A DNA stretch of 64,000 nucleotides from Balneolaceae bacterium (GCA_017795005.1 CP051242.1:806001-870000), one strand, 5' to 3'. Shown: positions 2-12,534, counted from the first letter of the stretch. Numbers and translations are program-made. Notes: generated by a model from the sequence alone, not told the origin.

Positions 2-2218
2 TATACCTTAGCAATAGTAGATGAAGGTTTGCTGGATTTAACAAACTTCAAGACTCCACAGCCACATGATATATTTTATGCCAGAGAGGCATTGGGCGTT
101 AAAACCTGGGATATGTTTGAGTTTGTAACTAGTGCTTTCTCAGGGAATATTTCTCGAATTCTATCAGTAGGTGGAGATGGTTCGGAGCAGGCTCTGGATC
201 CCTTGAACGAAGCAAACAGATTCAAACCCATGGTTCGTTTCGAAGGACCATATTACCTGAAACCCGGAGCGACTAATCAGCACAGAATTTCGATTCCAAA
301 TTATGTGGGCTCGGTAAGAACAATGGTGATTGCAGGGCATAATGGAGCATATGGACAAACAGAACAAACAACTCCCGTTAGAAAACCGGTTATGGTTCTG
401 GCAACTTTACCTAGAGTATTGGGGCCGTCAGAAACTGTTCAAATGCCCGTTAGCATTTTTGCTATGAAAAAGAGTGTCAAAAAAGTAGACGTTCGATTAG
501 AAGCTAGTGATATTTTTGAAATTCAGGGAAATGCACTTACTACGGTAGATTTTGAAGAACCGGGCGATCAGTTGATAAACTTTAAGCTCAAAACGAAATC
601 AGAAATTGGGGTAGGAAAGGTTCGTGTTGAAGTTCAAAGTAGAGATGAAACCGCCTATCATGAAATTGAGATTGCAGTTAGAAATCCGAATACACCATTC
701 GTAGATATAAAAAGTAAAGTTTTGGAGGAAGGAGAAAATTGGGAAGTTATTTTTGATCCTCAGGGAATGATTGGTACTAATTCTGCTGTGTTAGAAGTAT
801 CAAGAATTCCTCCGATTGATTTTGGCCGAAGACTGGATTACCTGCTTAGATATCCACATGGTTGTATCGAACAAACCACTTCTTCGGCATTTCCACAGTT
901 ATTTATCTCGAAGGTGATGGATATTACAGATGCTCAACAACTTCGGATCGAGGACAATATTGAAGCGGCAATTACCAGACTAAGCCGGTTCCTAACATCA
1001 AGTGGTGGACTTAGTTACTGGCCGGGTTACGAAACGGCAAATACATGGGCTACAAGTTATGCCTATCATTTTTTACTCGAAGCAGAAAAGCTTGGTTATT
1101 ACGTTCCATCCAATTTGATGAATAGTATTAACCGGTTTCAAAGATCCTATGCCCGAAACGGGACTAAAACGGAATACCGAAGATCAGACCTTACTCAGGC
1201 TTATCGACTTTATACACTAGCTTTAGCTAATACACCTGAACTTGGAGCTATGAATCGGTTTCGTGAACGTGCAGATATAACGGTTCAGGCAAAATGGAGA
1301 TTAGCTGCAGCTTATGTTTTGGCGGGTCAGCCAGAAGCAGCAAATGATATTATTTCCGGAGCCTCTGTGAATATACCCGAATACACTGAGTTTTCCGGAA
1401 ATTTCGGTTCTGCTTTAAGAGATCAGGCAATGATTTTGGAAACAGTAGCATTACTTAATCGCAGGGAAGAAGCTGCGATAATAGCGAGAGAGATATCATT
1501 AGAGTTAAGCTCAAAAAGATGGTTAAGTACTCAAACAACGGCTTATTCTTTAATCGCTATTTCCAAGTTTCTTGATCAATTTAATCCAGCCGGTGAAATG
1601 GCGGCTTCTTTTACTTTGAATGAAGAAAGAGATGGGGCAATCAGAACATCGGCTTTTTTGAGCCAAGTTCCGCTAAATATGGATGAATATTCTGATAATC
1701 AACTTGTGCTAGAGAACAGATCAGAAGGAACATTATTTGCTCGGTTAATATTAGAGGGTACCCCTTTAATTGGGGATAATGTTTCATCATCTAACAGTCT
1801 TGTTCAGAAAGTTCGCTTTATAGACCTGGAAGGAGATGAAATTAACCCAAATGAAATAGAGCAAGGAACAGATTTTGTTGCAGAAGTATTAGTCAGAAAT
1901 CCCGGACTGAGAGGAAATTATGAGGAAATGGCTCTAACGCAAATTTTCCCTTCAGGTTGGGAAATCAGGAATACTAGAATGGATGGGGAGTCTTTTAGCG
2001 AGCCTACCTCAAGTTTTGATTATCAGGATATCCGTGACGATCGGGTACATACTTATTTTGATTTGAGAAGCAATACAACGAAGGTTTATCGAATTCAATT
2101 GAATGCTAGTTATTTAGGTGAGTTTTATTTACCAGCAACGAATACGGAAGCAATGTATGATGAAACCGTAGGTGCGAGAACCAAGGGAATGTGGGTTAAG
2201 GTAATTGCACCAGAGTAA
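2..2218 (+). CDS. alpha-2-macroglobulin family protein, C-terminal part (5' truncated by window)
   Basis: The frame is already open at base 2 (reading YTLAIVDEGLLDLT), so this is the 3' part of a larger gene and not a short protein starting internally. Bacterial alpha-2-macroglobulins are periplasmic protease traps, usually well over 1,500 residues. The opening segment matches the conserved VDEGLLDLT...FY block of this family. The thioester motif GCIEQ, preceded by YPH, is visible with its Cys codon at 863-865, so the covalent trapping bond should be intact. It is followed by the alpha-helical thioester domain (repeated helices, about bases 900-1600) and a C-terminal receptor-binding-like domain. 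The stop lies 27 bp before pbpC, the same pairing as E. coli yfhM-pbpC. Family assignment is secure; the missing N-terminus prevents judging whether it is a lipoprotein. Confidence 0.9.
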   Translation, partial: YTLAIVDEGLLDLTNFKTPQPHDIFYAREALGVKTWDMFEFVTSAFSGNISRILSVGGDGSEQALDPLNEANRFKPMVRFEGPYYLKPGATNQHRISIPNYVGSVRTMVIAGHNGAYGQTEQTTPVRKPVMVLATLPRVLGPSETVQMPVSIFAMKKSVKKVDVRLEASDIFEIQGNALTTVDFEEPGDQLINFKLKTKSEIGVGKVRVEVQSRDETAYHEIEIAVRNPNTPFVDIKSKVLEEGENWEVIFDPQGMIGTNSAVLEVSRIPPIDFGRRLDYLLRYPHGCIEQTTSSAFPQLFISKVMDITDAQQLRIEDNIEAAITRLSRFLTSSGGLSYWPGYETANTWATSYAYHFLLEAEKLGYYVPSNLMNSINRFQRSYARNGTKTEYRRSDLTQAYRLYTLALANTPELGAMNRFRERADITVQAKWRLAAAYVLAGQPEAANDIISGASVNIPEYTEFSGNFGSALRDQAMILETVALLNRREEAAIIAREISLELSSKRWLSTQTTAYSLIAISKFLDQFNPAGEMAASFTLNEERDGAIRTSAFLSQVPLNMDEYSDNQLVLENRSEGTLFARLILEGTPLIGDNVSSSNSLVQKVRFIDLEGDEINPNEIEQGTDFVAEVLVRNPGLRGNYEEMALTQIFPSGWEIRNTRMDGESFSEPTSSFDYQDIRDDRVHTYFDLRSNTTKVYRIQLNASYLGEFYLPATNTEAMYDETVGARTKGMWVKVIAPE

Positions 2219-2245
2219 AGAACCTCGAACATTGAGCAAGGAAGT

Positions 2246-4603
2246 ATGAATATTTCAATCGAAAATAAACAAAGAAAGAAGTCCCCGCTTCAGAGGGGAT
2301 TTCGAGGTGTGTTGTTTTCATTAGTAATGATTCTTCTCTTAGCCTACTACTACTCTTTACCATCTCCATTATTTAATGCAAGCTACAGTACGGTATTAGA
2401 AAGCAAAAACGGAAACTTACTCGGAGCTAAAATAGCTGATGATGGTCAATGGAGATTTCCTGTTTCGAAAGAAGTTCCGGAAAAATTTAAAACCTCAATT
2501 ATAGAATTTGAGGATAATAACTTTTACCGACATCCGGGAGTCGACCCTATTGCTGTTGGAAGAGCTGTTATTCAAAATTATGAAGCAGGTGAAATTGTAA
2601 GTGGGGCCAGTACGCTTTCCATGCAAGTGATAAGACTTTCCAAAAAGAACCCTGAAAGAACGGTTTGGGAAAAACTTAAGGAAATGGTTCAGGCTACCCG
2701 GCTGGAGTTTTCATATTCTAAAGAAGAGATTATGAGTTTATATGCTGCTCATGCTCCATTTGGAGGGAATGTGGTTGGCTTGGAGGCCGCTTCATGGAGA
2801 TATTTCGGGAGAAGCCCTGATAAACTTTCCTGGGCAGAATCAGCTATGTTATCGGTGCTTCCGAACAGCCCGGCGCTAATCCACCCCGGAAGAAATAGAG
2901 AAGCGTTGAAATCAAAAAGAGATCGTTTGCTAGAGCGACTTTATCAGAAAGGGAAAATTGACTCACTAACATTTGAATTGGCTTTGTTGGAAAAACTACC
3001 CTCGAAACCTCTCCCACTTCCGAATGATGCACCACATTATTTGGCAGGTTTTTATAGTGGCTCAGAAGCAGGTAAAAAAATCGAATCTAAAATAGATCAG
3101 CAATTGCAAAAGAGGGTAAACAGAGCGGTGGAATATCATTGGGAACAGCTCTCAGCTAATGGAATTCATAATGCAGGTGTTGTAGTGCTGAATGTTAAAA
3201 CCCAAAGCATTGAAGCCTATATTGGGAATACAAAATCCGGAAAAGAACATAATGACCAAGTTAATGTTAATATTGCTCCAAGAAGTACCGGAAGTATTTT
3301 AAAACCTTTTTTATATATGCTGAAATTGAATGAGGGTGAGCTGCTTCCAAATTCGTTGGTACCGGATGTACCTTCCCGATTTTCGGATTATTCTCCAAAA
3401 AATTTCACACGAACATATTCTGGTTCTGTACCGGCATCTGAAGCCTTAGCTCGTTCTTTAAATGTTCCAGCAGTGTATATGCTTCAGGATTATGGGGTAC
3501 CAAAGTTCCATCACTATTTAAAAGAGTTTGGATTATCCACCATCAATAAAGCGCCAGAGCATTATGGGCTTACACTTATACTTGGTGGAGCAGAAGGCAC
3601 ACTACTGGATATTACTTCCGCATATGCTTCTTTTGCTTACCAGCTAAACAGATATGATGCACGTGTTCCAGAATCGGATGTATTCAGCGTTATTGATTTT
3701 GAAAATGGAAAAATAGCCGAAAAGGAAATTGAAATAAGTAGCGGAGCGATTTGGAGTACATTTGAAGCAATGACAGAAGTAAACCGACCGGAAGGAGAAA
3801 ATTTCTGGCGCAGATTCGAAGGTTCAAGGAAAGTGGCATGGAAAACGGGAACAAGTTATGGGTACAGAGATGCCTGGGCGATTGGGATCACTCCTGAGTA
3901 CGTAGTTGGAGTTTGGGTTGGAAATGCCGATGGAGAAGGAAGACCAAACCTTACTGGAATTAAAACCGCTGCTCCGGTACTTTTTGATGTTTTTAATTCT
4001 TTACCTACTACCAGCTGGTTTAAAGAACCACTCTACGAAACAAAAAAAATAAGTGTATGCAAGATTAGTGGCTTTCGAGCTGGTCAGTATTGTGATCGTC
4101 TTGATACTCTTTCAGTTCCTGAATCTGGTTTGCAGTCGTCTGTTTGCCCATTTCATAAAAAGGTTCATGTAAACAAAGAAGAATCATACAGAGTAAATAG
4201 TGGGTGTATTGCAGTAAGTGATATTAAATCTAAAAATTGGTTTGTATTACCCGCTGATGAGGAATGGTATTACAGAAAAACACACACTGAGTATAAAGTA
4301 CTTCCTCCTTTAGCAGAAGGGTGCGAGGAATCACTAGCTTCTATGAAATTAATGTATCCCTTTCAGAAATCTAGTATTTATGTACCTGTAGAATTAGATG
4401 GGAAAACTGGGAAAACAATATTTGAAGTTGCACATCGGAATCCTGAGACTAGAGTTTACTGGCATTTAGACGATCAGTTTTTGGGAGAAACCAGTCATTT
4501 TCATCAATTGTCTTTATCTCCGAAGCCAGGAAAACATACCCTCACGCTAATCGACGAATTTGGAGAAAGATTGGAGCATAAATTCCAGATTATCAGTAAT
4601 TGA
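2246..4603 (+). CDS. pbpC: penicillin-binding protein 1C (glycosyltransferase/transpeptidase)
   Basis: Bifunctional peptidoglycan synthase of 785 residues anchored by one N-terminal membrane helix (about residues 21-40). The glycosyltransferase domain shows the motif EDNNFYRHPGVD with catalytic Glu89, then GASTLSMQVIR. The transpeptidase domain has SILK (Ser350 to Lys353), SLN (404-406) and KTG (533-535), so all active-site motifs are present. The last ~90 residues (from about 700) match the BiPBP_C domain specific to PBP1C. A Cys-rich linker (about 600-660) precedes it. It follows the alpha-2-macroglobulin gene by 27 bp, and in this family the two act together in repairing and protecting the cell wall after protease breach. 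An AAGGAAG ribosome site precedes the ATG. Oddity: residues 13-22 (SPLQRGFRGV) appear to be translated from a small dispersed palindrome. Confidence 0.93.
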   Translation: MNISIENKQRKKSPLQRGFRGVLFSLVMILLLAYYYSLPSPLFNASYSTVLESKNGNLLGAKIADDGQWRFPVSKEVPEKFKTSIIEFEDNNFYRHPGVDPIAVGRAVIQNYEAGEIVSGASTLSMQVIRLSKKNPERTVWEKLKEMVQATRLEFSYSKEEIMSLYAAHAPFGGNVVGLEAASWRYFGRSPDKLSWAESAMLSVLPNSPALIHPGRNREALKSKRDRLLERLYQKGKIDSLTFELALLEKLPSKPLPLPNDAPHYLAGFYSGSEAGKKIESKIDQQLQKRVNRAVEYHWEQLSANGIHNAGVVVLNVKTQSIEAYIGNTKSGKEHNDQVNVNIAPRSTGSILKPFLYMLKLNEGELLPNSLVPDVPSRFSDYSPKNFTRTYSGSVPASEALARSLNVPAVYMLQDYGVPKFHHYLKEFGLSTINKAPEHYGLTLILGGAEGTLLDITSAYASFAYQLNRYDARVPESDVFSVIDFENGKIAEKEIEISSGAIWSTFEAMTEVNRPEGENFWRRFEGSRKVAWKTGTSYGYRDAWAIGITPEYVVGVWVGNADGEGRPNLTGIKTAAPVLFDVFNSLPTTSWFKEPLYETKKISVCKISGFRAGQYCDRLDTLSVPESGLQSSVCPFHKKVHVNKEESYRVNSGCIAVSDIKSKNWFVLPADEEWYYRKTHTEYKVLPPLAEGCEESLASMKLMYPFQKSSIYVPVELDGKTGKTIFEVAHRNPETRVYWHLDDQFLGETSHFHQLSLSPKPGKHTLTLIDEFGERLEHKFQIISN
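2279..2303. repeat. small dispersed palindrome inside the pbpC N-terminus
   Basis: TCCCC (2282-2286) pairs with GGGGA (2295-2299) across a short loop, and the translation SPLQRGFRG is a peptide often seen where a short palindromic repeat has landed in frame in FCB-type and other genomes. It sits in the poorly conserved cytoplasmic tail ahead of the membrane helix. That the same palindrome is dispersed elsewhere in this genome is inference from remembered examples; only one copy was noticed in this window. Confidence 0.4.
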
Positions 4604-4845
4604 TAGTTCTGTAAACAGGAATATTAAATTTAATTTTGTGGATAAGTTTGGTAATCTGAAATGTAAAAAAGCCTAAAATAGGATATTAAGGAGTATTTAA
4701 CCTGTTTTTCTTTAAAATCAAGGGTGTTAGAATTATGTAGTTTTTTGAATAATAATGTGGAAAACTTAAAAAATTTCCGCATACTTGGGGTTCACTAAAA
4801 AAAAAATATCTACAAAACAGGCTATAAATAACACTCTACAGGGGT

Positions 4846-6681
4846 TTGAATATGGTTGAGATAACTAAAAAATGGCTGCTCACCATTTTGGTTGCTATCT
4901 ACGGAGTAGTCGCATATGGACAAACTCTGCCCGGACAATCGGTTTCTCCCGATCTCCAGGAAGAGGCTACTAAATATGAACAGTACTATGAAGTAGTGTT
5001 AGACAATGCATTATCTGATTACTATAAATCTGGTACTTACATTGTTGATGTTAAAGCAACGTTAGAGCGTGTTCTGGTTCCCAGGGGGTATGAGGTTGTT
5101 GAAGGTGAAGAACCTATAAAACTGGAAAACCTGCCCGGCTTACCTTTTATTCCTCCGAACCTGAGAACAAGTACTCAGCCTCAAAGAGATAGCTTGAAAG
5201 CTTCTGGTTTTGACACCCGGTTCAGACTTACCCGCCTCAATATTAAAGTATTAGTAGATACTTCTTACAGTGATGAAGATGTAGAATTTGTTGAAGAAGC
5301 TGCAGCTTTAATTTCCAATGCTGACCGCTTTAGGGGAGATATTATCTCTGTAGAGAAGAAAGTTTTTCCTAGAAGCGCCAGAGCAATAGAACAGGATGCT
5401 AAAACACCCCCGACTGCAAGAAAGGAAGACCCACAAGTTGAACAGATTATACCTCAGCAACCAGCTCAACAAGAAGCGGAGAAAAATATGTTTTTAGGAA
5501 TTGATTGGAATAATCCACAACACCTGATGTACGTAATTGCAGGACTGGCTGCTTTATTTTTGATAGCTTTGTTATTTGCGTTTTTAAGAAAGCCAAAGAA
5601 AGAGGAAACGCCACCGTATCCTTATCCAATGTTTGAAGGAATGATGAATCAAGGTGGACAAGAATCTGCAAAAAAAGAAGACAGTGGCCCTGATGCTAAA
5701 ACGCTCGCTTTATTCGAAGAAGACAAAACATACCTAACTAACACATGTATTAGTACACCTAAAGTAGTGGCAGATTTGGTTCACCAATGGATTGCAAGTG
5801 ATGAGGAACAAGGTGTAATCAGAGCCGTAAGAAGTTTTGTTAGTGTAGACGAAAAACTACTCAACGTATTGGAGCCTCATCTTGAAGCTGAGACCTACGA
5901 AACAATTCGTTTCGGGATTGCAAATACTGATCCGATTCCTCTGGATGAACGAATTGAAGAAGCACGTTCTTTCCGTAGAAGTATCCAGCAAATAAAAGCT
6001 TCTAAAAGTTCACCGGATTCAGGATCTAATTTATTCGATTTTATTTATCAGCTTACCGATCAGCAACTACTGCATCTAATGAAAGAGGAGTCTGACGAGA
6101 TGGTAGCAATACTTTTGGCACAGGTAGCAGGTGAAAGAGCGGGAGTAATTCTTCAGAAAATGGATGATCAAAAACGTATATCCATTCTTCTTAAAATGGG
6201 TAAAATTAATAACATTCCTATTTCTGTTTACAAAAAAGTAGCAGCGCATTTCTCAAATAAAGCATTGTCTGTATCTGACATGAAATATGTTGCAGCTGAT
6301 GGAGTTGATACTATACTTACTACCATCGAGACTTTACCTCTTTCTGAGCAGGATAATTATGTAAGATCTATTGCAGAACAAGACCTGAATCTTGCTAAGA
6401 AAATCAGGAAATTCTTTATTGGGTTTGATGACCTTCCAAAGGTTAAGGATGAATTTGTACAATCTGCCCTGGAAGAAATTCCAACGGAGACTATCATACT
6501 TGCACTTCGTACAGCACCTGCCGCAGTAAGGGAAAAAGTATTGAGGGTTCGACCTAAGCGTGAACAGCAATTGATTTTATCAGAAATTGACAATCCTTCT
6601 GAAGCTCCGGCAAGAGAAATTGAAGATGCCCAAAAAGCGATGTTATACGCCGTTAGAAGAAAAATGAAAACTGAGGCCTGA
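4846..6681 (+). CDS. FliF-FliG fusion-like rotor protein
   Basis: 611 residues that read as a flagellar MS-ring protein and C-ring switch protein joined in one chain. Residues 1-25 form a signal peptide or anchor; 45-176 resemble the third ring-building motif of FliF, ending in the typical RGDIISVEKKVFP; 227-247 is a membrane helix; 290-320 resemble the FliF cytoplasmic tail that binds FliG (STPKVVADLVHQWI, compare NPE.VA.LIR.WL). From about 395 the FliG middle domain follows (LFDFIYQLTDQQLLHLM, then EMVAILLAQVAGERAGVIL, with EESD where FliG has EHPQ). Residues 490-611 match FliG-C (LAKKIRKFFIGFDDLPKVKD...ALEEI, ending REIEDAQKAMLYAVRRKM). FliF ring motifs 1 and 2 are absent. It leads a cluster with MotA/MotB-like genes, spacing to the next gene 4 bp. 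The similarity was read by eye; the fusion itself is one unbroken frame. Confidence 0.78.
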   Translation: MNMVEITKKWLLTILVAIYGVVAYGQTLPGQSVSPDLQEEATKYEQYYEVVLDNALSDYYKSGTYIVDVKATLERVLVPRGYEVVEGEEPIKLENLPGLPFIPPNLRTSTQPQRDSLKASGFDTRFRLTRLNIKVLVDTSYSDEDVEFVEEAAALISNADRFRGDIISVEKKVFPRSARAIEQDAKTPPTARKEDPQVEQIIPQQPAQQEAEKNMFLGIDWNNPQHLMYVIAGLAALFLIALLFAFLRKPKKEETPPYPYPMFEGMMNQGGQESAKKEDSGPDAKTLALFEEDKTYLTNTCISTPKVVADLVHQWIASDEEQGVIRAVRSFVSVDEKLLNVLEPHLEAETYETIRFGIANTDPIPLDERIEEARSFRRSIQQIKASKSSPDSGSNLFDFIYQLTDQQLLHLMKEESDEMVAILLAQVAGERAGVILQKMDDQKRISILLKMGKINNIPISVYKKVAAHFSNKALSVSDMKYVAADGVDTILTTIETLPLSEQDNYVRSIAEQDLNLAKKIRKFFIGFDDLPKVKDEFVQSALEEIPTETIILALRTAPAAVREKVLRVRPKREQQLILSEIDNPSEAPAREIEDAQKAMLYAVRRKMKTEA

Positions 6682-6685
6682 ACAT

Positions 6686-7789
6686 ATGAAGAGGGTAGCC
6701 TTAGTTATATTAAGCTGCATACTAAGCATTAGTGCATTCCAAAATTCTGCAGCCCAGGATTATGAGTCTGGTGATCCATACATGATGGAACAGATTGTTA
6801 ATCAAATGAGCGAAGAACTAAATGATATACCTGTTAATATTCGGCGTATTGCTGTTTATAAAATAAATTATAGCTCGTTCAGGTTTACAACAGAAGAAAT
6901 CGAATATATAAGAGCGGAAGTCGAATATGCATTTCGTCAATATGCAGGGTTAACAATTTTATCGCCTCCGGAACTGGAGCCCAACGATAAAATGAAAATA
7001 GTTGGAAGCGATAGCAGTCTTCAAATTCTGAATGTCAGAGGGCGTTCACTTGCAGATATTTCTCCAGAACTTCTGGCAGAAATTACGAGCAAATATGGAG
7101 TACAAGGACTTGTAGAACTAAGTGTCCAACGCAGGATGCCTGAAGGTCTTGTTTTGGCAATAAGAATGATGAACCCTGTTTCTAGAGAAGTAGTTTGGAC
7201 TAAAAGTTTTATTGCCAATGAAAAGCAACCCGAAGTAGTAGTTGATAAAGGCAAAACTTCAGTATTAAAATTCGGAGTAGGAAGTAGAACAGGTGATAAT
7301 ATTTTTTTCCCGGATAGTGTAATTACGCAAGATAGTACAGTCATTTTTGGAGATAGTACGGCTAACGATGTAATTGTAGATTTACATGCCACTTTCACCT
7401 ACAGACAACCTCTCAATGAAGCAAACAGTGCATATATTGGTTTTACTGGTGGAATGCATGTATTAAGAGCTCGAAATGCTCAGGAGTACAGCATGACTTT
7501 ACTGGAATTCGGAGTTTCCTATTACCAGGCGATAACCCCTGAAAAAACAGATTTAGACCTTTACCGGGTCATGCTTTTTGTGAATGGGAATGTTCAATTC
7601 CCACTTGGAAAACCCACTGGAGAAATGTTTTCAGTAATGCCGGGCTTGGTACTTAATCTAAGTGAAAATCTGGGGCTTTCATTTTATAGTAGCATAACTC
7701 TTTCAGGTGAAACGCTCACATTAGAAAATAACAGACAAGTAACCTATAACAAGATTGGATATGGAGTACAAGGTGTTATTCGATTCTAG
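6686..7789 (+). CDS. FlgO/CsgG-like periplasmic protein with C-terminal beta-barrel-like region
   Basis: 367 residues with a clear signal peptide (about 1-23, ending NSAAQ). Residues 35-175 have the look of a FlgO/CsgG-type alpha/beta domain: an amphipathic helix with RRIAVYKIN, then LAEITSKYGVQGLVELSVQ and RMMNPVSREVVWTKSF, as in proteins that ring the outer-membrane end of flagella or curli pores. The C-terminal half (about 235-367) consists of alternating polar/hydrophobic strands ending in VIRF, a plausible outer-membrane barrel. It starts 4 bp after the FliF-FliG gene and overlaps the following lipoprotein start, so it belongs to the same operon. The inferred role is an envelope partner of the motor. 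The family call is tentative; an unrelated periplasmic protein with a barrel is possible. Confidence 0.5.
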   Translation: MKRVALVILSCILSISAFQNSAAQDYESGDPYMMEQIVNQMSEELNDIPVNIRRIAVYKINYSSFRFTTEEIEYIRAEVEYAFRQYAGLTILSPPELEPNDKMKIVGSDSSLQILNVRGRSLADISPELLAEITSKYGVQGLVELSVQRRMPEGLVLAIRMMNPVSREVVWTKSFIANEKQPEVVVDKGKTSVLKFGVGSRTGDNIFFPDSVITQDSTVIFGDSTANDVIVDLHATFTYRQPLNEANSAYIGFTGGMHVLRARNAQEYSMTLLEFGVSYYQAITPEKTDLDLYRVMLFVNGNVQFPLGKPTGEMFSVMPGLVLNLSENLGLSFYSSITLSGETLTLENNRQVTYNKIGYGVQGVIRF

Positions 7790-8378
7790 ATTGATAGGTA
7801 ATTTCTTTATTGCAACTTTGTTGTTAATAATTGGATGTAAATCTTCAGAAAATTTACCTGCAGATTCCTCTCAGAATCAACCACAAACAAGGCAAGAGCA
7901 AGAAGCGGCTACTTCAAATATTCCACAGGAAGTTTCTGATACCGAAACTGTGACAGTAACCTATAAGAATGGCAGCTCTAATATTCAGCTTAAATTGAAT
8001 CCCTCAAGAGATCAGTTTTATATGGATTTATCAGGGATGACTCCTACTCAAAAAGATTCTATTGTTGTAAAAGATTCTACTTTGATAAAAAACAGAGCAA
8101 TTGATATTCAATCTCTTTTATCCAGCTATAGAAAAGCTCAGGATTTATTTTACTTAGGAGAGTATAGGCAGGCTCTTGAAGAAGTAGATAAAACAATTGA
8201 GATTCAGGAAACAGCAGATGCATATGCACTAAAGGGAACGATCTTTTTTATGCTTGAAAATATAACTGCAGCACAAGCAAACTGGACCCGCGCAGTACAA
8301 ATGGATCCTAATATTCCGGTGCCAAGTATTCCTGAACTTGAAACCTTAATTGATGAAATACGGGGGGGAGACAACTAG
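7773..8378 (+). CDS. lipoprotein with TPR-like repeats
   Basis: The best start is GTG at 7773, six bases after GGAG and inside the end of the preceding gene; a TTG at 7791 is the alternative, and an upstream TTG at 7755 lacks support. The GTG start gives a compact lipoprotein signal (LIGNFFIATLLLIIGC) with the modified Cys in the LIIGC lipobox, followed by a low-complexity Gln/Ser/Thr linker. The C-terminal ~90 residues (YRKAQDLFYLGEYRQALEEV, then ADAYALKGTIFFMLENITAA) look like two or three TPR helices, a protein-protein interaction module. It is translationally coupled to its neighbours (17 bp overlap upstream, 1 bp gap to the MotA-like gene). The likely place is the outer or inner membrane lipid layer, as an assembly or docking factor of the motor complex; that role is inference. 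Confidence 0.65.
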   Translation: MLFDSRLIGNFFIATLLLIIGCKSSENLPADSSQNQPQTRQEQEAATSNIPQEVSDTETVTVTYKNGSSNIQLKLNPSRDQFYMDLSGMTPTQKDSIVVKDSTLIKNRAIDIQSLLSSYRKAQDLFYLGEYRQALEEVDKTIEIQETADAYALKGTIFFMLENITAAQANWTRAVQMDPNIPVPSIPELETLIDEIRGGDN

Positions 8379-8379
8379 T

Positions 8380-9198
8380 ATGAGGCTTTCATTAACAAAT
8401 TTATTAGGGGTACTATTTAGTATAGGAGTTTTGGTTTTTGGGATAACCGAGATTACCGGGGTTACAAATGTTCTAAATTCTATTCCAGCTTTATCAGCAT
8501 ATACATTTTTAAATCTACCAAGTTTATTTATTGTACTTGGAGGTGTATTAAACGCTGTATTTATTACTTATCAGCCCAGATATGTTGGAAAAGCTTTTGG
8601 TAGTATCTTTCTGATCTTCAGTCAATCCAAAAGCTCTGCAAAAACACTTTCTCAGGATCTGGAGAATATTCTTGAATGGAACGATCAAATTAAGAATGAC
8701 AGAGTAAATGCATTATCCAAACTGGAAGGTGAATACTCTACTGAAGTTTCCGGATATTTATTTTCTTTATTGAGTACTAATTACACTACTGAAGATATCC
8801 AGGATTTTGGCTCTAATCATGTGGAAGAGCAGTATTTCCGAAAGCTTGTTGTTGTAGATGTATTACGTGCAATGGGGGGAGCAGCTCCATCATTCGGTAT
8901 GTTTGGGACACTCTTCGGATTGATTGTAATGCTCGGGCAGCTTGAGAACCCTTCCGGTATGGGACCGGGTTTGGCTGCAGCATTGATTACAACGCTTTAT
9001 GGTATTTCCCTGGCACGCTTCATCTTTTATCCTGTTGCTGAAAAACTTAAAAATATAGCCCAACTCAATAAATTCAGAGAATATTTTATCCTAGAAGGAA
9101 TTTTGATGATTAATGAGAAGAAATCTTCATTCTATATTCAGGATAAATTGAGTACCTACCTGCAAAGAGATTTCAAAAAGAATAAGGATGACGAATAA
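8380..9198 (+). CDS. MotA-like stator protein
   Basis: 272 residues from ATG 8380, which follows the strong ribosome site GGGGGGGAG at a 9-base spacing; an in-frame TTG/ATG further upstream is not needed. Four membrane helices are seen at about 5-24, 42-63, 165-188 and 196-218, with a cytoplasmic loop between helices 2 and 3 carrying many charged residues. The helix 3-4 block APSFGMFGTLFGLIVML, then NPSGMGPGLAAALITTLYG and PVAEKL is the MotA/PomA signature, including the Pro (170) that lines the ion channel. TolQ/ExbB were considered but lack this exact block. It is followed 12 bp later by the MotB-like gene, giving a complete ion-driven stator pair. Partner of the FliF-FliG fusion by context. 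Confidence 0.85.
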   Translation: MRLSLTNLLGVLFSIGVLVFGITEITGVTNVLNSIPALSAYTFLNLPSLFIVLGGVLNAVFITYQPRYVGKAFGSIFLIFSQSKSSAKTLSQDLENILEWNDQIKNDRVNALSKLEGEYSTEVSGYLFSLLSTNYTTEDIQDFGSNHVEEQYFRKLVVVDVLRAMGGAAPSFGMFGTLFGLIVMLGQLENPSGMGPGLAAALITTLYGISLARFIFYPVAEKLKNIAQLNKFREYFILEGILMINEKKSSFYIQDKLSTYLQRDFKKNKDDE

Positions 9199-9210
9199 AC
9201 GCTAGTTCTT

Positions 9211-9903
9211 ATGCTTTCACGGAAAAATGTAACAACGCTTAGAGACCAGGAAGAGCATTTCGAAGATCAGGAATGGCTACTTACCTACAGTGATATGATT
9301 ACTCTTCTGCTGGCCTTTTTTGCGATGCTGATTGCGGTATCATATGTGGATTTAAACCTGTGGGAGCAAATGAAGCAGGGGCTCCGTTCGGAAATCAATA
9401 AAGAAGAAAACGTAAGAACTCCTCTTGCTGAAGTGAAGCAAGATTTGGATTCTTTGCTGGTTGTAGAAAAGCAACAAGGTCTTGTAGATATCACACTCGA
9501 CAGAGATGGTATCAAGCTATTTTTTAATAGTAGTTCATTTTATGGCTCAGGAGAAGCAGATCTATTACCAACTGGGGAACAAATAATTGACAAAGTAACC
9601 CAGGCAATGAACGCCTTAGACTTCTATAAATTCAATGTAGATGTGGAAGGTCATACAGATAATGTGCCTATCAGTACACCTGTATTTCCTTCAAACTGGG
9701 AATTATCAGTTGCGAGAGCATCCGGCGTAGTAAAGTATTTTATTGAAGAGGGAATTGAAGGGGAACGTCTTAAGGCTTCAGGTTATGCTGATACAAAACC
9801 AGTAGTTCCACATCAGAATGAGCAAGGAAGAGATATAGTTGAGAACAGAGCCCTTAATAGAAGGATTGTAGTCCGAATTTATTACCAGCTTAGTAATTTT
9901 TAA
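9211..9903 (+). CDS. MotB-like stator protein with OmpA-type peptidoglycan-binding domain
   Basis: 230 residues. A single N-terminal membrane helix (about 25-46) starts with LTYSDMITLLLAFF; Asp28 aligns with the ion-carrying Asp of MotB/PomB. A short plug/linker region follows (50-95), then an OmpA/MotB peptidoglycan-binding domain with GHTDN (147-151), NWELSVARA (162-170) and NRRIV (216-220). Length is shorter than E. coli MotB (about 300), mainly in the linker. In a MotA5B2 stator the Asp passes ions through the membrane and the C-terminal domain anchors the unit in the wall. It lies 12 bp after the MotA-like gene and 9 bp before the VOC-family gene. A TolR/ExbD identity is excluded by the complete OmpA-like domain. 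Confidence 0.88.
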   Translation: MLSRKNVTTLRDQEEHFEDQEWLLTYSDMITLLLAFFAMLIAVSYVDLNLWEQMKQGLRSEINKEENVRTPLAEVKQDLDSLLVVEKQQGLVDITLDRDGIKLFFNSSSFYGSGEADLLPTGEQIIDKVTQAMNALDFYKFNVDVEGHTDNVPISTPVFPSNWELSVARASGVVKYFIEEGIEGERLKASGYADTKPVVPHQNEQGRDIVENRALNRRIVVRIYYQLSNF

Positions 9904-9912
9904 AAGTCCATA

Positions 9913-10275
9913 ATGGAGAAAAAACTGTCACATTTTGCAGTACAGTTTCCCGTTCAAGACCCAGTGGAAGCAGGGAAGTGGTATGAAAATAAGTTAGGAT
10001 TTTCCATTGAATTTGAATGGGGTGACCCTGTCGATTATCTGGTTACCCAAAGAGAAAATGCAGTTTCAATTCATTTTATCCGAACTGAAGTCAAGGATGT
10101 TGAACCTAGAACGATCTATATATTTTGTTATGATGTAGATGCTGTTTATGAAGAGCTATCTTCAAATGAGAATATGGAGTTAACTGCTCCATTCAATCAT
10201 GAGTATGGAATGAGAGACTTCGAAGTTAGAGATCCATATGGAAACCTGATTGTGTTTGGGATGGGCATTCAGTGA
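9913..10275 (+). CDS. VOC (glyoxalase/bleomycin-resistance fold) family protein
   Basis: 120 residues with the paired beta-alpha-beta-beta-beta layout of the vicinal-oxygen-chelate superfamily: the opening KKLSHFAVQFPVQDPVEAGK, WYENKLGFSIEFEWGD, and the closing MRDFEVRDPYGNLIVFG. The last part (DPYGNLIVF) is the usual C-terminal VOC signature with a possible metal ligand Glu/His arrangement. Substrate unknown. It lies 9 bp after the MotB-like gene and 53 bp before the repeat protein on the same strand, so it is probably transcribed with the motor cluster, but nothing in the sequence ties it to motility. It may be a passenger gene. Confidence 0.8.
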   Translation: MEKKLSHFAVQFPVQDPVEAGKWYENKLGFSIEFEWGDPVDYLVTQRENAVSIHFIRTEVKDVEPRTIYIFCYDVDAVYEELSSNENMELTAPFNHEYGMRDFEVRDPYGNLIVFGMGIQ

Positions 10276-10328
10276 TGTAACTTTTTCAGGTTAAACAGGT
10301 ATTAGCCACACTGAATGCATTCAAAATT

Positions 10329-11537
10329 ATGAGTAAACAACAATTTAGAACTCCCAAAGAGGGTTTTGATCTGGACGATTACATTGATGAAAAATCACAG
10401 TCAGAACCGGATTTAGTGAGTGAGATAAATACGGAAAAGCCCAAACCGAGATTTTTCCAGTTTACTGCCTTTACAATACTACTTTTTCTGGCAGTAATGA
10501 TGTTTATGAATCCCTTTCCTCAGGTAAATACTTTTATTTCTGACTTTATCTCATCAACATTCGCTCAAAATGAGGAACCAGCTTCACTAACTGGAGAAGC
10601 TACAGTTGCAGATTTTCCGGTTACGGGTTCTTTTCTGGATTATGTAAGTCAGCTTAGGTCTATTGATGTTTCTGAAGATATTTCTGTAAATGGAGCTGAA
10701 GCGCTGTATGATGCAAATGTTCCCATTCAATTTGTACAGCGTTTGGATGAACTCGATCTGTTCGATGAACTTTCATCTGCCGGGTTATTAGCCTTATATC
10801 GATCCGAAATCCCTGATCAATATTATAAAGCTATCTCGGATGCAGATGTATTTGATGATCTTTCCTTTAATTCTGTACTAGCACTTTTTAATGCGAATGT
10901 ACCGGAGTCCTTTTATTCAGGCTTAGCTCAGGGAGACTTATTTGATGACCTGTCAGGAAATGGAGCACTCGCAATCTATAATGAAAATATACCTCTAAGT
11001 TATATTCAGGCTTTAGGGGAATCGGACCTGTTTGACACGATGTCCGGAACCGGAATACTTAGTTTATATCGGGCAGATATCCCACTGGAATATATGTTAG
11101 GTATGGCTGAGACAGATATTTTTGATGATATGACTGCAAGTGGAATGCTTGCACTATATAATCGGGAGATTTCTGTTTCATATATGCAACAACTTGCGGA
11201 TACAGATTTATTCGATTCAATGTCAGGATCAGGTGCTGTGGCAATCTTTAATGAAAGTATTCCTCTGGAGTACATTCAGGATTTAGCCAGCGCCGATTTG
11301 TTTGATGAAACGTCTCCAAGTGGAATCCTCTCTTTGTACAGGCAGAATGTATCGGTTGAATATATACAAGCAATGGGAGCGTCTGGAGTATTTGATGAGA
11401 TGTCCGCATCACAAGTACTAAGGTTGGTGAATGAAGATATACCGATAGAATTCTATGCTCAGCTTGGTAATTTGGGATTAGAAGATCTTAGCCCAAATGA
11501 TGTAATTCAGTTGTATGAGAAGGATTCTCAAGAGTAA
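10329..11537 (+). CDS. single-pass membrane protein with about nine 30-residue tandem repeats
   Basis: 402 residues: an acidic cytoplasmic N-terminus, one membrane helix at about 42-60, and an exported region made almost wholly of 30-residue repeats (about 113-395). Each repeat has the form FD(D/E)(L/M)S..G.LALY...IPLEY.Q.L...DL, predicted as two short helices joined by a turn, so the whole may form a superhelical rod or binding scaffold. At the DNA level the period is 90 bp but copies are diverged, so they are old. No known family was recognised; a loose resemblance to the helical repeats of some M56 peptidase tails was noted. Same strand and 53 bp after the VOC gene, it is the last large gene of the motor cluster. 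A structural or peptidoglycan/outer-membrane contact role is speculation. Confidence 0.85.
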   Translation: MSKQQFRTPKEGFDLDDYIDEKSQSEPDLVSEINTEKPKPRFFQFTAFTILLFLAVMMFMNPFPQVNTFISDFISSTFAQNEEPASLTGEATVADFPVTGSFLDYVSQLRSIDVSEDISVNGAEALYDANVPIQFVQRLDELDLFDELSSAGLLALYRSEIPDQYYKAISDADVFDDLSFNSVLALFNANVPESFYSGLAQGDLFDDLSGNGALAIYNENIPLSYIQALGESDLFDTMSGTGILSLYRADIPLEYMLGMAETDIFDDMTASGMLALYNREISVSYMQQLADTDLFDSMSGSGAVAIFNESIPLEYIQDLASADLFDETSPSGILSLYRQNVSVEYIQAMGASGVFDEMSASQVLRLVNEDIPIEFYAQLGNLGLEDLSPNDVIQLYEKDSQE

Positions 11538-11601
11538 TTTTCCCGAATGGGAATGTTTATTTCAATAAAAAGGTGATATAGCTGTACTAACAGATACAAA
11601 T

Positions 11602-11751
11602 ATGGACAACTCAGTTCAACATATACTACTACAACTGGAATTACTTCTTAAAGAGTATCCTGAGGCGAAGTATTACATTCAGGATCATATCCGGAGGATG
11701 ATCAGTGATGTTCTGAATTCGGAAGATTTAATTCAGGAGCTGCAGCAATAA
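11602..11751 (+). CDS. possible 49-residue small protein
   Basis: ATG at 11602 opens a 49-codon frame rich in Leu, Glu and Gln (VQHILLQLELLLKEYPEAKY and a helical, acidic tail), which would form an amphipathic helical hairpin. It lies between the repeat protein and the YwaF-like gene in otherwise non-coding DNA. No clear ribosome site precedes it (AAGGTGAT is about 30 bases away), so it may not be translated. No homology recognised. Confidence 0.35.
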   Translation: MDNSVQHILLQLELLLKEYPEAKYYIQDHIRRMISDVLNSEDLIQELQQ

Positions 11752-11808
11752 TTGCTCTTTTATTTAAAGCTGGTTTTTCAGTTCTTTTGATGAAACAGCC
11801 TTACCTCG

Positions 11809-12534
11809 TTGAATTCTTTTTTCGGGACAAATAACCTATTCAGCTCCTATTCATCGGAGCATTTTATCCTTCTATTTGGATTCCTTGCCTTTGCTATTGG
11901 AATAATCAGATATCTGAAAGGCTACTCAGAAGACTATCAAAGAAAAGTATTGCTGATAATTGCAATCATCCTGTCTGTTTCCCAGCTCTCCAAAATTCCA
12001 TTAAATCTCTATACCAACACTTTTGACATCACAAAAGATATTCCCTTACATATGTGTAATTTTCTGCCTTTTGTAATGGTAGTTGTTTATGCTATAAAAA
12101 GCAGAGCGATTTGGGCTACGGTTTTTTTCTGGATCATATTGGGAGTTTCTCAAGCCAACTTTACTCCATCAGTTCAATATTCGCTGTTCCAGTATGATGC
12201 TATCCGATACTGGATGGTTCATATGGGGTTAGTATTATTGGCTTTTTATCCGGCAATATCCTGGAAATGGGAGTTGGAGCTTAAAGATGTAGTCAGGACG
12301 ATTATCTGGCTAAACATAGCTGCTCTTATCATTTATGGATTGAATCTGCTGCTAAACAGTAATTATTTATACGTAATGGGAAAACCACCCGGAACCACCT
12401 TCTTTAGCATTTTGCCGGAATGGCCAACGTACATTCTGGTTTTGGAAGTAATAATTATCGTCTGGTCATTGATGGTGCTGGGTATTTTTAAACTGATAAG
12501 AAAAGTACCACAAACAAAAAAAGCCCCCCGGTAG
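11809..12534 (+). CDS. YwaF/TMEM164-like integral membrane protein
   Basis: About 241 residues with six to seven membrane helices. The pattern SSEHFILLFGFLAF at the start and PLHMCNFLPFVMVVV in the middle match the TIGR02206 (YwaF) family, related to eukaryotic TMEM164, for which a lipid acyltransferase activity has been reported; bacterial function is unproven. The start is the only acceptable one after an in-frame TGA at 11791: TTG at 11809, without a good ribosome site. The last codons (KKAPR) and the stop are read from the terminator of a displaced tRNA-Arg fragment, so the natural C-terminus may have been replaced when DNA was inserted here. The charged tail after the last helix is not expected to matter for folding. 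Confidence 0.75.
   Translation: MNSFFGTNNLFSSYSSEHFILLFGFLAFAIGIIRYLKGYSEDYQRKVLLIIAIILSVSQLSKIPLNLYTNTFDITKDIPLHMCNFLPFVMVVVYAIKSRAIWATVFFWIILGVSQANFTPSVQYSLFQYDAIRYWMVHMGLVLLAFYPAISWKWELELKDVVRTIIWLNIAALIIYGLNLLLNSNYLYVMGKPPGTTFFSILPEWPTYILVLEVIIIVWSLMVLGIFKLIRKVPQTKKAPR

What the first reader, a model, noticed from the sequence alone, without database searches (positions are those of the whole stretch)
4846..11537. Compact rotary-machine cluster without flagellar export or filament genes
FliF-FliG fusion, MotA-like and MotB-like stator, a FlgO/CsgG-like exported protein, a TPR lipoprotein and a membrane-anchored repeat protein lie in tandem with overlaps or gaps under 60 bp. None of fliM/N, fliI/H, flhA/B, flgE or fliC is seen in the flanking DNA. 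This fits an ion-driven machine that spans the envelope and may drive surface gliding, an outer-membrane pore, or another rotating structure. This is the best candidate for an undescribed system in the window.
Basis: partly seen in the sequence, partly recalled or inferred. Interest (0 to 1): 0.92.

Follow-up and report, generated by a model that had tools for sequence, protein, structure and literature searches.

The report
Flagellar-type motor without a flagellum
A bacterium with no flagellum carries a compact five-gene set that looks like the turning part of a flagellum joined to an outer-membrane protein, and a second copy joined to a pilus-assembly system, so this may be an undescribed class of ion-driven surface machine.

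Summary
At 4852-9903 lie five tightly packed genes: FliF-FliG fusion, outer-membrane FlgO/LpoB-like barrel protein, TPR lipoprotein, MotA and MotB. The glyoxalase (9913) and the repeat protein (10329-11537) are not part of the conserved unit. Relatives with a true flagellum keep their own FliG, and some also carry the fusion. Among 394 phylum genomes I found 31 fusion loci in 22 genomes. Every fusion scores E<=1e-144, against E>=2e-34 for all else. Every contig that reaches keeps MotA and MotB beside the fusion. Motor residues persist (MotB Asp32, MotA Pro173/Pro222, FliG Arg281) while the FliM-binding EHPQ motif is lost. The flagellar FliGs form a separate clade. The genome's second copy (16 such loci in all) is joined to a chaperone-usher-like pilus operon whose usher carries the same TPR domain. 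Best reading: an ion-driven rotor-stator machine that spans the envelope and moves an outer-membrane structure. Rotation and the driven object are inferred, not shown. I found no published description, but only open-access papers were searchable.

The parts
4852..6681 (+). FliF-FliG fusion, 609 aa (ATG 4852; an in-frame TTG lies at 4846): signal peptide, FliF ring-building motif RBM3, one transmembrane helix, FliF C-terminal tail, FliG N-M-C. FliF RBM1/RBM2 and the FliF N-terminal membrane helix are absent.
4951..5376 (+). Periplasmic FliF RBM3-like domain (residues about 34-175) with an invariant RGD
   Evidence: hhalign to E. coli FliF 395-434 E=1.6e-5; invariant R163-G164-D165 in the 611-aa numbering; order of secondary-structure elements fits a split RBM but model confidence is low
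5530..5586 (+). Single transmembrane helix (residues 227-245) corresponding to FliF TM2
   Evidence: hydropathy 2.72, helix 222-245 in model
5734..5808 (+). FliF C-terminal FliG-binding tail (residues 295-319) leading straight into FliG N
   Evidence: hhalign to E. coli FliF 528-552, 36% identity, E=5.2e-4
5809..6678 (+). FliG N, M and C domains
   Evidence: FliG C on FliG of the MotAB-FliG complex 8ucs Z=13.1, rmsd 1.9 A, 86 residues
6686..7789 (+). Exported outer-membrane protein, 367 aa: signal peptide, LpoB/TolB-N/PelC/FlgT-like periplasmic domain, C-terminal 8-strand beta-barrel ending in Phe
   Evidence: AlphaFold pLDDT 71.7; LpoB Z=10.9, PelC Z=7.9, FlgT Z=7.2, barrels OpcA Z=11.4 and NspA Z=10.6; conserved in 17 aligned loci
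7755..8378 (+). TPR lipoprotein (lipobox LIIG-C; probable start ATG 7761); its TPR domain is homologous to the C-terminal domain of the usher in the sister loci
   Evidence: window TPR to usher C-terminus E=8e-15, 37% over 81 aa
8380..9198 (+). MotA-type stator subunit (272 aa from ATG 8380)
   Evidence: PF01618 E=5.5e-18; MotP/PomA-class models E about 1e-32 over nearly the whole length; Pro173/Pro222 equivalents invariant
9211..9903 (+). MotB-type stator subunit with plug and OmpA-like peptidoglycan-binding domain
   Evidence: PF13677 E=1.5e-13, PF00691 E=6.8e-16; Asp32 equivalent in 30 of 30 homologues

Best explanation
A non-flagellar, ion-driven rotor-stator machine that spans the cell envelope. 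A MotA/MotB stator, anchored to peptidoglycan by the MotB OmpA domain, uses ion flow to push the FliG C domain of a ring made of FliF-FliG fusion subunits. The FliF RBM3 part forms a ring in the periplasm on a single membrane helix, so torque or force passes through the inner membrane without a full M-ring, C-ring (FliM/N), rod or export gate. The ring acts, with the TPR lipoprotein, on an outer-membrane partner. In the window locus (type A) this is the LpoB/FlgT-like barrel protein. In the sister locus of the same genome (type B) it is a chaperone-usher-like pilus assembly pore whose C-terminus carries the same TPR domain. The most likely job is to rotate or strain a surface structure for adhesion or surface movement. 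Shown: gene set, conservation, homology, retained motor residues, absence of FlhA and FliM/N. Inferred: ring assembly, ion flux, rotation, contact with the outer-membrane partner. Unknown: what type A moves outside the cell.
For: Whole-genome absence of FlhA and FliM/N, with controls ringing in four flagellated genomes. 31 fusion loci in 22 of 394 genomes, E<=2.3e-145, against E>=2.3e-34 for every other hit. MotA and MotB sit beside the fusion in every locus whose contig reaches, though gene order differs between types. The FlgO-like protein is in 11 of 11 type A loci, and a distant homologue is in the third arrangement (hhalign E=3.1e-7). Genomes with a real flagellum carry the fusion in addition to a normal FliG. 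Motor residues kept: MotB Asp32 30/30, MotA Pro173 and Pro222 29/29, FliG Arg281 as R/K in all; FliM-binding EHPQ lost. FliF tail joined to FliG N. FliG tree: all 31 flagellar FliGs, E. coli included, form one group (100/98) apart from all fusions. TPR lipoproteins match the usher C-terminus. Usher-like: hhalign E=4.6e-5 over 259 columns; PapD-like chaperone E=2.8e-6.
Against: No experiment shows a ring, ion flow or rotation. The FliF RBM3 part of the AlphaFold model is poor (pLDDT mostly under 50), and FliF homology rests on short profile matches. FliG Asp288 is not kept and Asp289 is Glu in types A and B. The MotA loop residues Arg90/Glu98 could not be aligned. The usher and chaperone assignments are remote: the own-genome usher is not found by PF00577. 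The system is patchy within its family.
Confidence: 0.75

Rival explanations
1. A force transducer rather than a rotary engine: MotAB works the FliF-FliG assembly back and forth or under tension, to energise an outer-membrane event such as secretion, pore gating or envelope tethering, much as TolQR-TolA or ExbBD-TonB do.
For: The outer-membrane protein has a TolB-N/LpoB-like domain; a TPR lipoprotein plus an OmpA-domain protein recall CpoB/Pal. PMC12204202 describes further uncharacterised motor-driven transducers in this lineage, with a TPR gene beside the motor in some.
Against: FliG with a stator-contact domain has no role in known TolA/TonB-type systems; RBM domains form closed rings; the stator is MotA/MotP/PomA-class, not TolQ/ExbB.
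Confidence: 0.15
2. The motor stands in for GldLM and powers the type IX secretion system and its surface movement.
For: The genome has a 2425-aa SprA translocon frame but no GldM by PF12081 and no GldL by TIGR03513 (no positive control).
Against: SprA is in 88 of 92 Balneolaceae, many of which lack any FliF-FliG fusion, so the fusion cannot be the general T9SS motor. No T9SS gene lies in the operon.
Confidence: 0.06
3. A decaying remnant of a lost flagellum, without function.
For: Relatives still have flagella; FliG parts are homologous.
Against: Intact frames, invariant motor residues and tight operon structure across genera; occurs alongside complete flagella; its FliG does not group with the flagellar FliGs of the same phylum.
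Confidence: 0.02
4. A split flagellar operon whose export and filament genes lie elsewhere.
For: None beyond homology.
Against: No FlhA, no FliM/N in a 99.5% complete one-contig genome.
Confidence: 0.01
5. A phage-defence system of the Zorya kind (ZorA/ZorB stator driving an intracellular effector).
For: MotB matches ZorB models at up to E=1.1e-19.
Against: No ZorA, C, D or E match in the core genes; MotB matches flagellar models much better (E=6e-48); partners are envelope proteins; no nuclease or helicase in the conserved unit.
Confidence: 0.01

Closest known systems
Bacterial flagellar motor (FliF-FliG rotor with MotA/MotB stator)
   Same: All four torque-generating parts: FliF RBM3 and FliG-binding tail, FliG N-M-C, MotA, MotB; key ion-channel residues kept
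   Different: FliF and FliG are one protein lacking RBM1/2; no FliM/N, no FlhA; EHPQ lost; outer-membrane partner instead of rod, hook and filament; FliG outside the flagellar clade
Chlamydia FliF-FliG fusion (Bergeron 2016, PMC4768692)
   Same: A natural FliF-FliG fusion in a non-flagellated bacterium
   Different: Chlamydia lacks the RBM3-like domain, keeps part of the SctJ-like region, carries FliG-M homology, and has FlhA and an injectisome; here RBM3 is what remains, FliG is complete, and MotA/MotB are adjacent
GldLM / type IX secretion and gliding motor of Bacteroidota
   Same: Ion-driven 5:2-type motor acting on the outer membrane in the same phylum
   Different: No FliG rotor in that system; GldL/GldM not detected here
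Agl-Glt gliding machinery of Myxococcus (PMC9120999)
   Same: MotAB-like stator reused outside a flagellum, in an envelope-spanning complex
   Different: No FliG or FliF rotor described; different partners
Chaperone-usher fimbriae (FimC/FimD and relatives)
   Same: The sister (type B) loci have pilin-like subunits, a PapD-like chaperone and an usher-like barrel
   Different: Known chaperone-usher systems have no motor genes; the usher-like protein here has a C-terminal TPR domain and is only remotely related
FlgT/FlgO/FlgP (Vibrio H-ring), LpoB, PelC
   Same: Fold of the periplasmic half of the window outer-membrane protein
   Different: Here fused to its own 8-strand barrel

Membership tests
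Bacterial flagellum | Type III export gate (FlhA) | tested here: not met
   PF00771 absent from the whole genome; positive in four flagellated controls and 32 of 92 family members
Bacterial flagellum | C-ring switch FliM/FliN | tested here: not met
   PF01052 absent; controls positive
Bacterial flagellum | FliG belongs with flagellar FliG | tested here: not met
   All 31 flagellar FliGs form one side of a branch (100/98) that excludes all fusions
Bacterial flagellum | Filament, hook and rod genes | not tested
   Not searched separately; judged from FlhA and the flanks
Flagellar-type rotor-stator motor (works like) | Ion-channel residues MotB Asp32, MotA Pro173 and Pro222 | tested here: met
   30/30 and 29/29
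Flagellar-type rotor-stator motor (works like) | FliG C domain with stator-facing charges | tested here: met
   Arg281 as R/K in all; Asp289 is Glu in types A and B, Asp288 not kept; fold match to 8ucs
Flagellar-type rotor-stator motor (works like) | Ring assembly and rotation | not testable with these tools
   Needs cryo-electron microscopy or a tethering assay
Zorya defence system | ZorA/ZorB with ZorC/D or ZorE | tested here: not met
   Only generic ZorB matches to MotB; no ZorA/C/D/E in the core genes
T9SS gliding motor (GldLM) | GldL/GldM | tested here: inconclusive
   No PF12081 and no TIGR03513, but neither search had a true gliding Bacteroidota positive control
Chaperone-usher pilus (type B sister locus only) | Usher homology | tested here: inconclusive
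   hhalign to seven E. coli ushers P=69, E=4.6e-5; PF00577 in 1 of 11 members, none in own genome
Chaperone-usher pilus (type B sister locus only) | PapD-like chaperone | tested here: met
   hhalign to seven E. coli chaperones P=88, E=2.8e-6 over the N-terminal domain

The most novel reading that the evidence does not exclude
A categorically new rotary machine: flagellar-type rotors and stators that turn outer-membrane assemblies without any type III export. One branch is wired to chaperone-usher-like pili, giving ion-driven (rotating) pili; the other, in the window, turns an LpoB/FlgT-like barrel. Its FliG lineage lies outside all flagellar FliGs sampled, which would make it a separate, possibly early, use of the motor.
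Probability: 0.45. Interest if true: 0.96.

Novelty: categorically new. Interest (0 to 1): 0.88.

Why it matters
To my knowledge FliG-based rotation is known only from flagella. A free-standing FliF-FliG-MotAB machine, present with or without a flagellum, shows that the motor core can be uncoupled from the export apparatus. That bears on the long-standing question of how motor and secretion modules came together. If the type B loci work as drawn, pili assembled by a chaperone-usher-like route could be powered by ion flow, which no known system does. One relative in the data that is not a metagenome assembly, Balneola sp. EhC07, has both types and no FlhA, so the idea can be tested directly.

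Tried and rejected
(1) Split flagellum: rejected by whole-genome searches for FlhA and FliM/N. (2) Repeat protein 10329-11537 and glyoxalase 9913-10275 as parts: rejected, not conserved in the operon. (3) Zorya: rejected. (4) General replacement of GldLM: disfavoured because SprA is nearly universal in the family while the fusion is patchy. (5) FlgO-type protein against PDB by sequence: nothing convincing; structure search was needed. (6) Usher and chaperone profiles against single E. coli sequences gave nothing; profiles of seven sequences each did. (7) An alignment of types A and B together could not be used for the collection scan. (8) Search beyond the phylum was not possible, because only handles inside it could be centres. 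(9) AlphaFold of the FliF half: low confidence, not used as evidence of fold beyond the order of elements. (10) Rfam: nothing in 4500-12000; promoter-like sites no commoner than in shuffles. (11) Paper searches for a non-flagellar FliG/FliF/MotAB cluster or a motor-linked usher found only the Chlamydia fusion.

Full report
WHAT IS THERE. The window is bases 806001-870000 of a single-contig genome of 3,747,071 bases, 99.5% complete. Named relatives with the same operon are Balneolaceae / Rhodothermia. At 4852-9903 there are five genes on the + strand: FliF-FliG fusion, an exported barrel protein, a TPR lipoprotein, MotA and MotB, with gaps or overlaps of +4, -35, about 0 and +12 nt. A glyoxalase-family gene and a membrane-anchored 30-residue-repeat protein follow. 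These two are not part of the unit: in the closest relative other genes follow motB, and only one congener repeats the arrangement.

THE FUSION. FliG M and C are unmistakable (PDB profile E=5.5e-42; structure Z 13-15 to FliG). The FliF part is the C-terminal half of FliF. A stretch matches E. coli FliF RBM3 395-434 (E=1.6e-5) with an invariant RGD. It is followed by one strong membrane helix and a match to the last 25 residues of E. coli FliF (528-552, 36% identity, E=5.2e-4), the known FliG-binding tail, which leads straight into FliG N. So two proteins that touch in the flagellum are joined where they touch. RBM1, RBM2 and the N-terminal membrane helix of FliF are replaced by a signal peptide. 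The AlphaFold model is good only for the FliG part.

THE OTHER PARTS. The exported protein has a periplasmic domain of the LpoB / TolB-N / PelC / FlgT fold and a C-terminal 8-strand barrel ending in Phe. MotA matches flagellar MotP/PomA-class models over nearly its whole length, and ExbB/TolQ models only over a short core. MotB has plug and OmpA domains. Across loci the proton-site Asp of MotB is invariant (30/30), the two channel prolines of MotA are invariant (29/29) and FliG Arg281 is always R or K. The FliM-binding EHPQ motif of FliG is gone, which fits the absence of FliM.

NO FLAGELLUM. FlhA and FliM/N are absent from the whole genome, while controls ring. Of four PF01618 (MotA/ExbB/TolQ) genes in the genome, two are the MotAs of the two fusion loci; the other two (243 and 250 aa frames) lie elsewhere and were not classified further. 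In the family, 32 of 92 genomes have FlhA. Fusion carriers occur both without it (window genome, G077, G139, G026, G038, G054, G100, G143, G163, G175) and with it (G046, G089, G127, G293, G313, G360), and the latter also have an ordinary FliG.

SPREAD AND TYPES. A profile of the fusion over 394 phylum genomes gives 31 fusion loci in 22 genomes, at E<=2.3e-145, and nothing else better than 2.3e-34. Three arrangements exist. Type A (window): fusion - FlgO-like barrel - TPR - MotA - MotB. Type B: four pilin-like genes - chaperone - usher-like barrel - fusion - TPR - MotA - MotB with SPOR repeats; 16 loci, including a second locus of the window genome at 2,604,000-2,622,000. Two of the 16, from another family of the order, differ upstream or are cut by the contig end. 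A third arrangement in a distant family of the phylum: FlgO-like barrel - TPR - MotA - MotB - fusion; its barrel protein is a remote homologue of the window's (hhalign E=3.1e-7). One genome also has a damaged type B-like copy with the FliF part but no FliG, and with a transposase gene in front of a truncated chaperone.

TYPE B IS A PILUS-LIKE OPERON. Pfam and NCBIfam barely recognise these proteins. Profile comparison with E. coli families supports a PapD-like chaperone (E=2.8e-6) and, more weakly, an usher (E=4.6e-5 over 259 columns). The TPR lipoproteins of all types match the C-terminus of these ushers. This ties type A and type B together and suggests that the TPR part is where the motor meets the outer membrane.

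DESCENT. In a tree of FliG M-C domains, all flagellar FliGs (30 from the phylum plus E. coli) are one group (100/98) and the fusions lie outside it. Types A and B are sister groups (96/86), and the third arrangement is apart. The fusion was therefore not made recently from the flagellum of a relative. The tree is unrooted and has long branches, so it does not say which came first.

MECHANISM. Shown: composition, conservation, retained motor residues, lack of FlhA and FliM/N. Inferred: the fusion forms a ring; MotAB, fixed to peptidoglycan, drives it by ion flow; the RBM3 ring and the TPR lipoprotein pass torque to the outer-membrane barrel or usher. What the type A machine moves is unknown. 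By analogy with type B I expect a surface structure. Published descriptions of the family report cells as non-motile or flagellated and no gliding (PMC5167729), so any surface movement would be new. A link to type IX secretion was considered because SprA is present without detectable GldM/GldL, but SprA is nearly universal in the family and the fusion is not.

KNOWN RELATIVES. The nearest published object is the Chlamydia FliF-FliG fusion (PMC4768692), which lacks the RBM3 domain, has only FliG-M homology, and has an injectisome context. Papers on 5:2 motors, MotAB evolution and loss of flagella that I searched for the terms describe no FliG rotor outside flagella in the passages found. The paper library is open-access only and holds no preprint collection, so an unseen description is possible.

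NOVELTY CALL. The parts are known; the machine is not. I rate it categorically new at the level of the system (no known system couples a FliF-FliG rotor and MotAB to an outer-membrane barrel or usher without type III export), while its engine is plainly a relative of the flagellar motor.

LIMITS. No experiment; a shallow alignment for the FliF half; remote usher assignment; no search outside the phylum; filament, hook and rod genes not searched one by one; names of the genome search set are withheld. The identity of Balneola sp. EhC07 with genome G163 (both types, no FlhA) rests on equal contig length (249,496) and position.

Noticed in passing
G000:C1:2604000-2622000 (L003): Second fusion locus of the same genome, in an operon of four pilin-like genes, a PapD-like chaperone and an usher-like barrel with a C-terminal TPR domain; its MotB carries SPOR repeats, which suggests septal or polar peptidoglycan.
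   Followed up: yes
G000:C1:2675303-2676877 (L082/L083): Full-length SprA (2425 aa frame) without detectable GldM or GldL; SprA is in 88 of 92 family members. The type IX secretion motor in Balneolaceae may be divergent or different.
   Followed up: partly
L091 (G112:C1:3612000-3631900, reverse strand): Damaged chaperone-usher locus with a FliF-RBM3-type protein (343 aa) that has no FliG, a TPR/SPOR lipoprotein and no MotAB; a transposase gene precedes the truncated chaperone and the usher frame is split.
   Followed up: partly
window 10329-11537: Membrane-anchored protein of about eight 30-residue repeats (xLFDDLSxxGxLALYNxxIPxxYxxxLxxx); weak match to the defence candidate model PDC-S70 (E=1.5e-4). 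Found in the same place only in one congener.
   Followed up: partly
window 29-4603: Alpha-2-macroglobulin-like protein (by eye) followed by a transglycosylase/transpeptidase with a BiPBP_C domain (PBP1C type), directly upstream.
   Followed up: no
window 11809-12534: TMEM164-family membrane protein (PF14808, E=2.6e-35), a family better known from eukaryotes.
   Followed up: no
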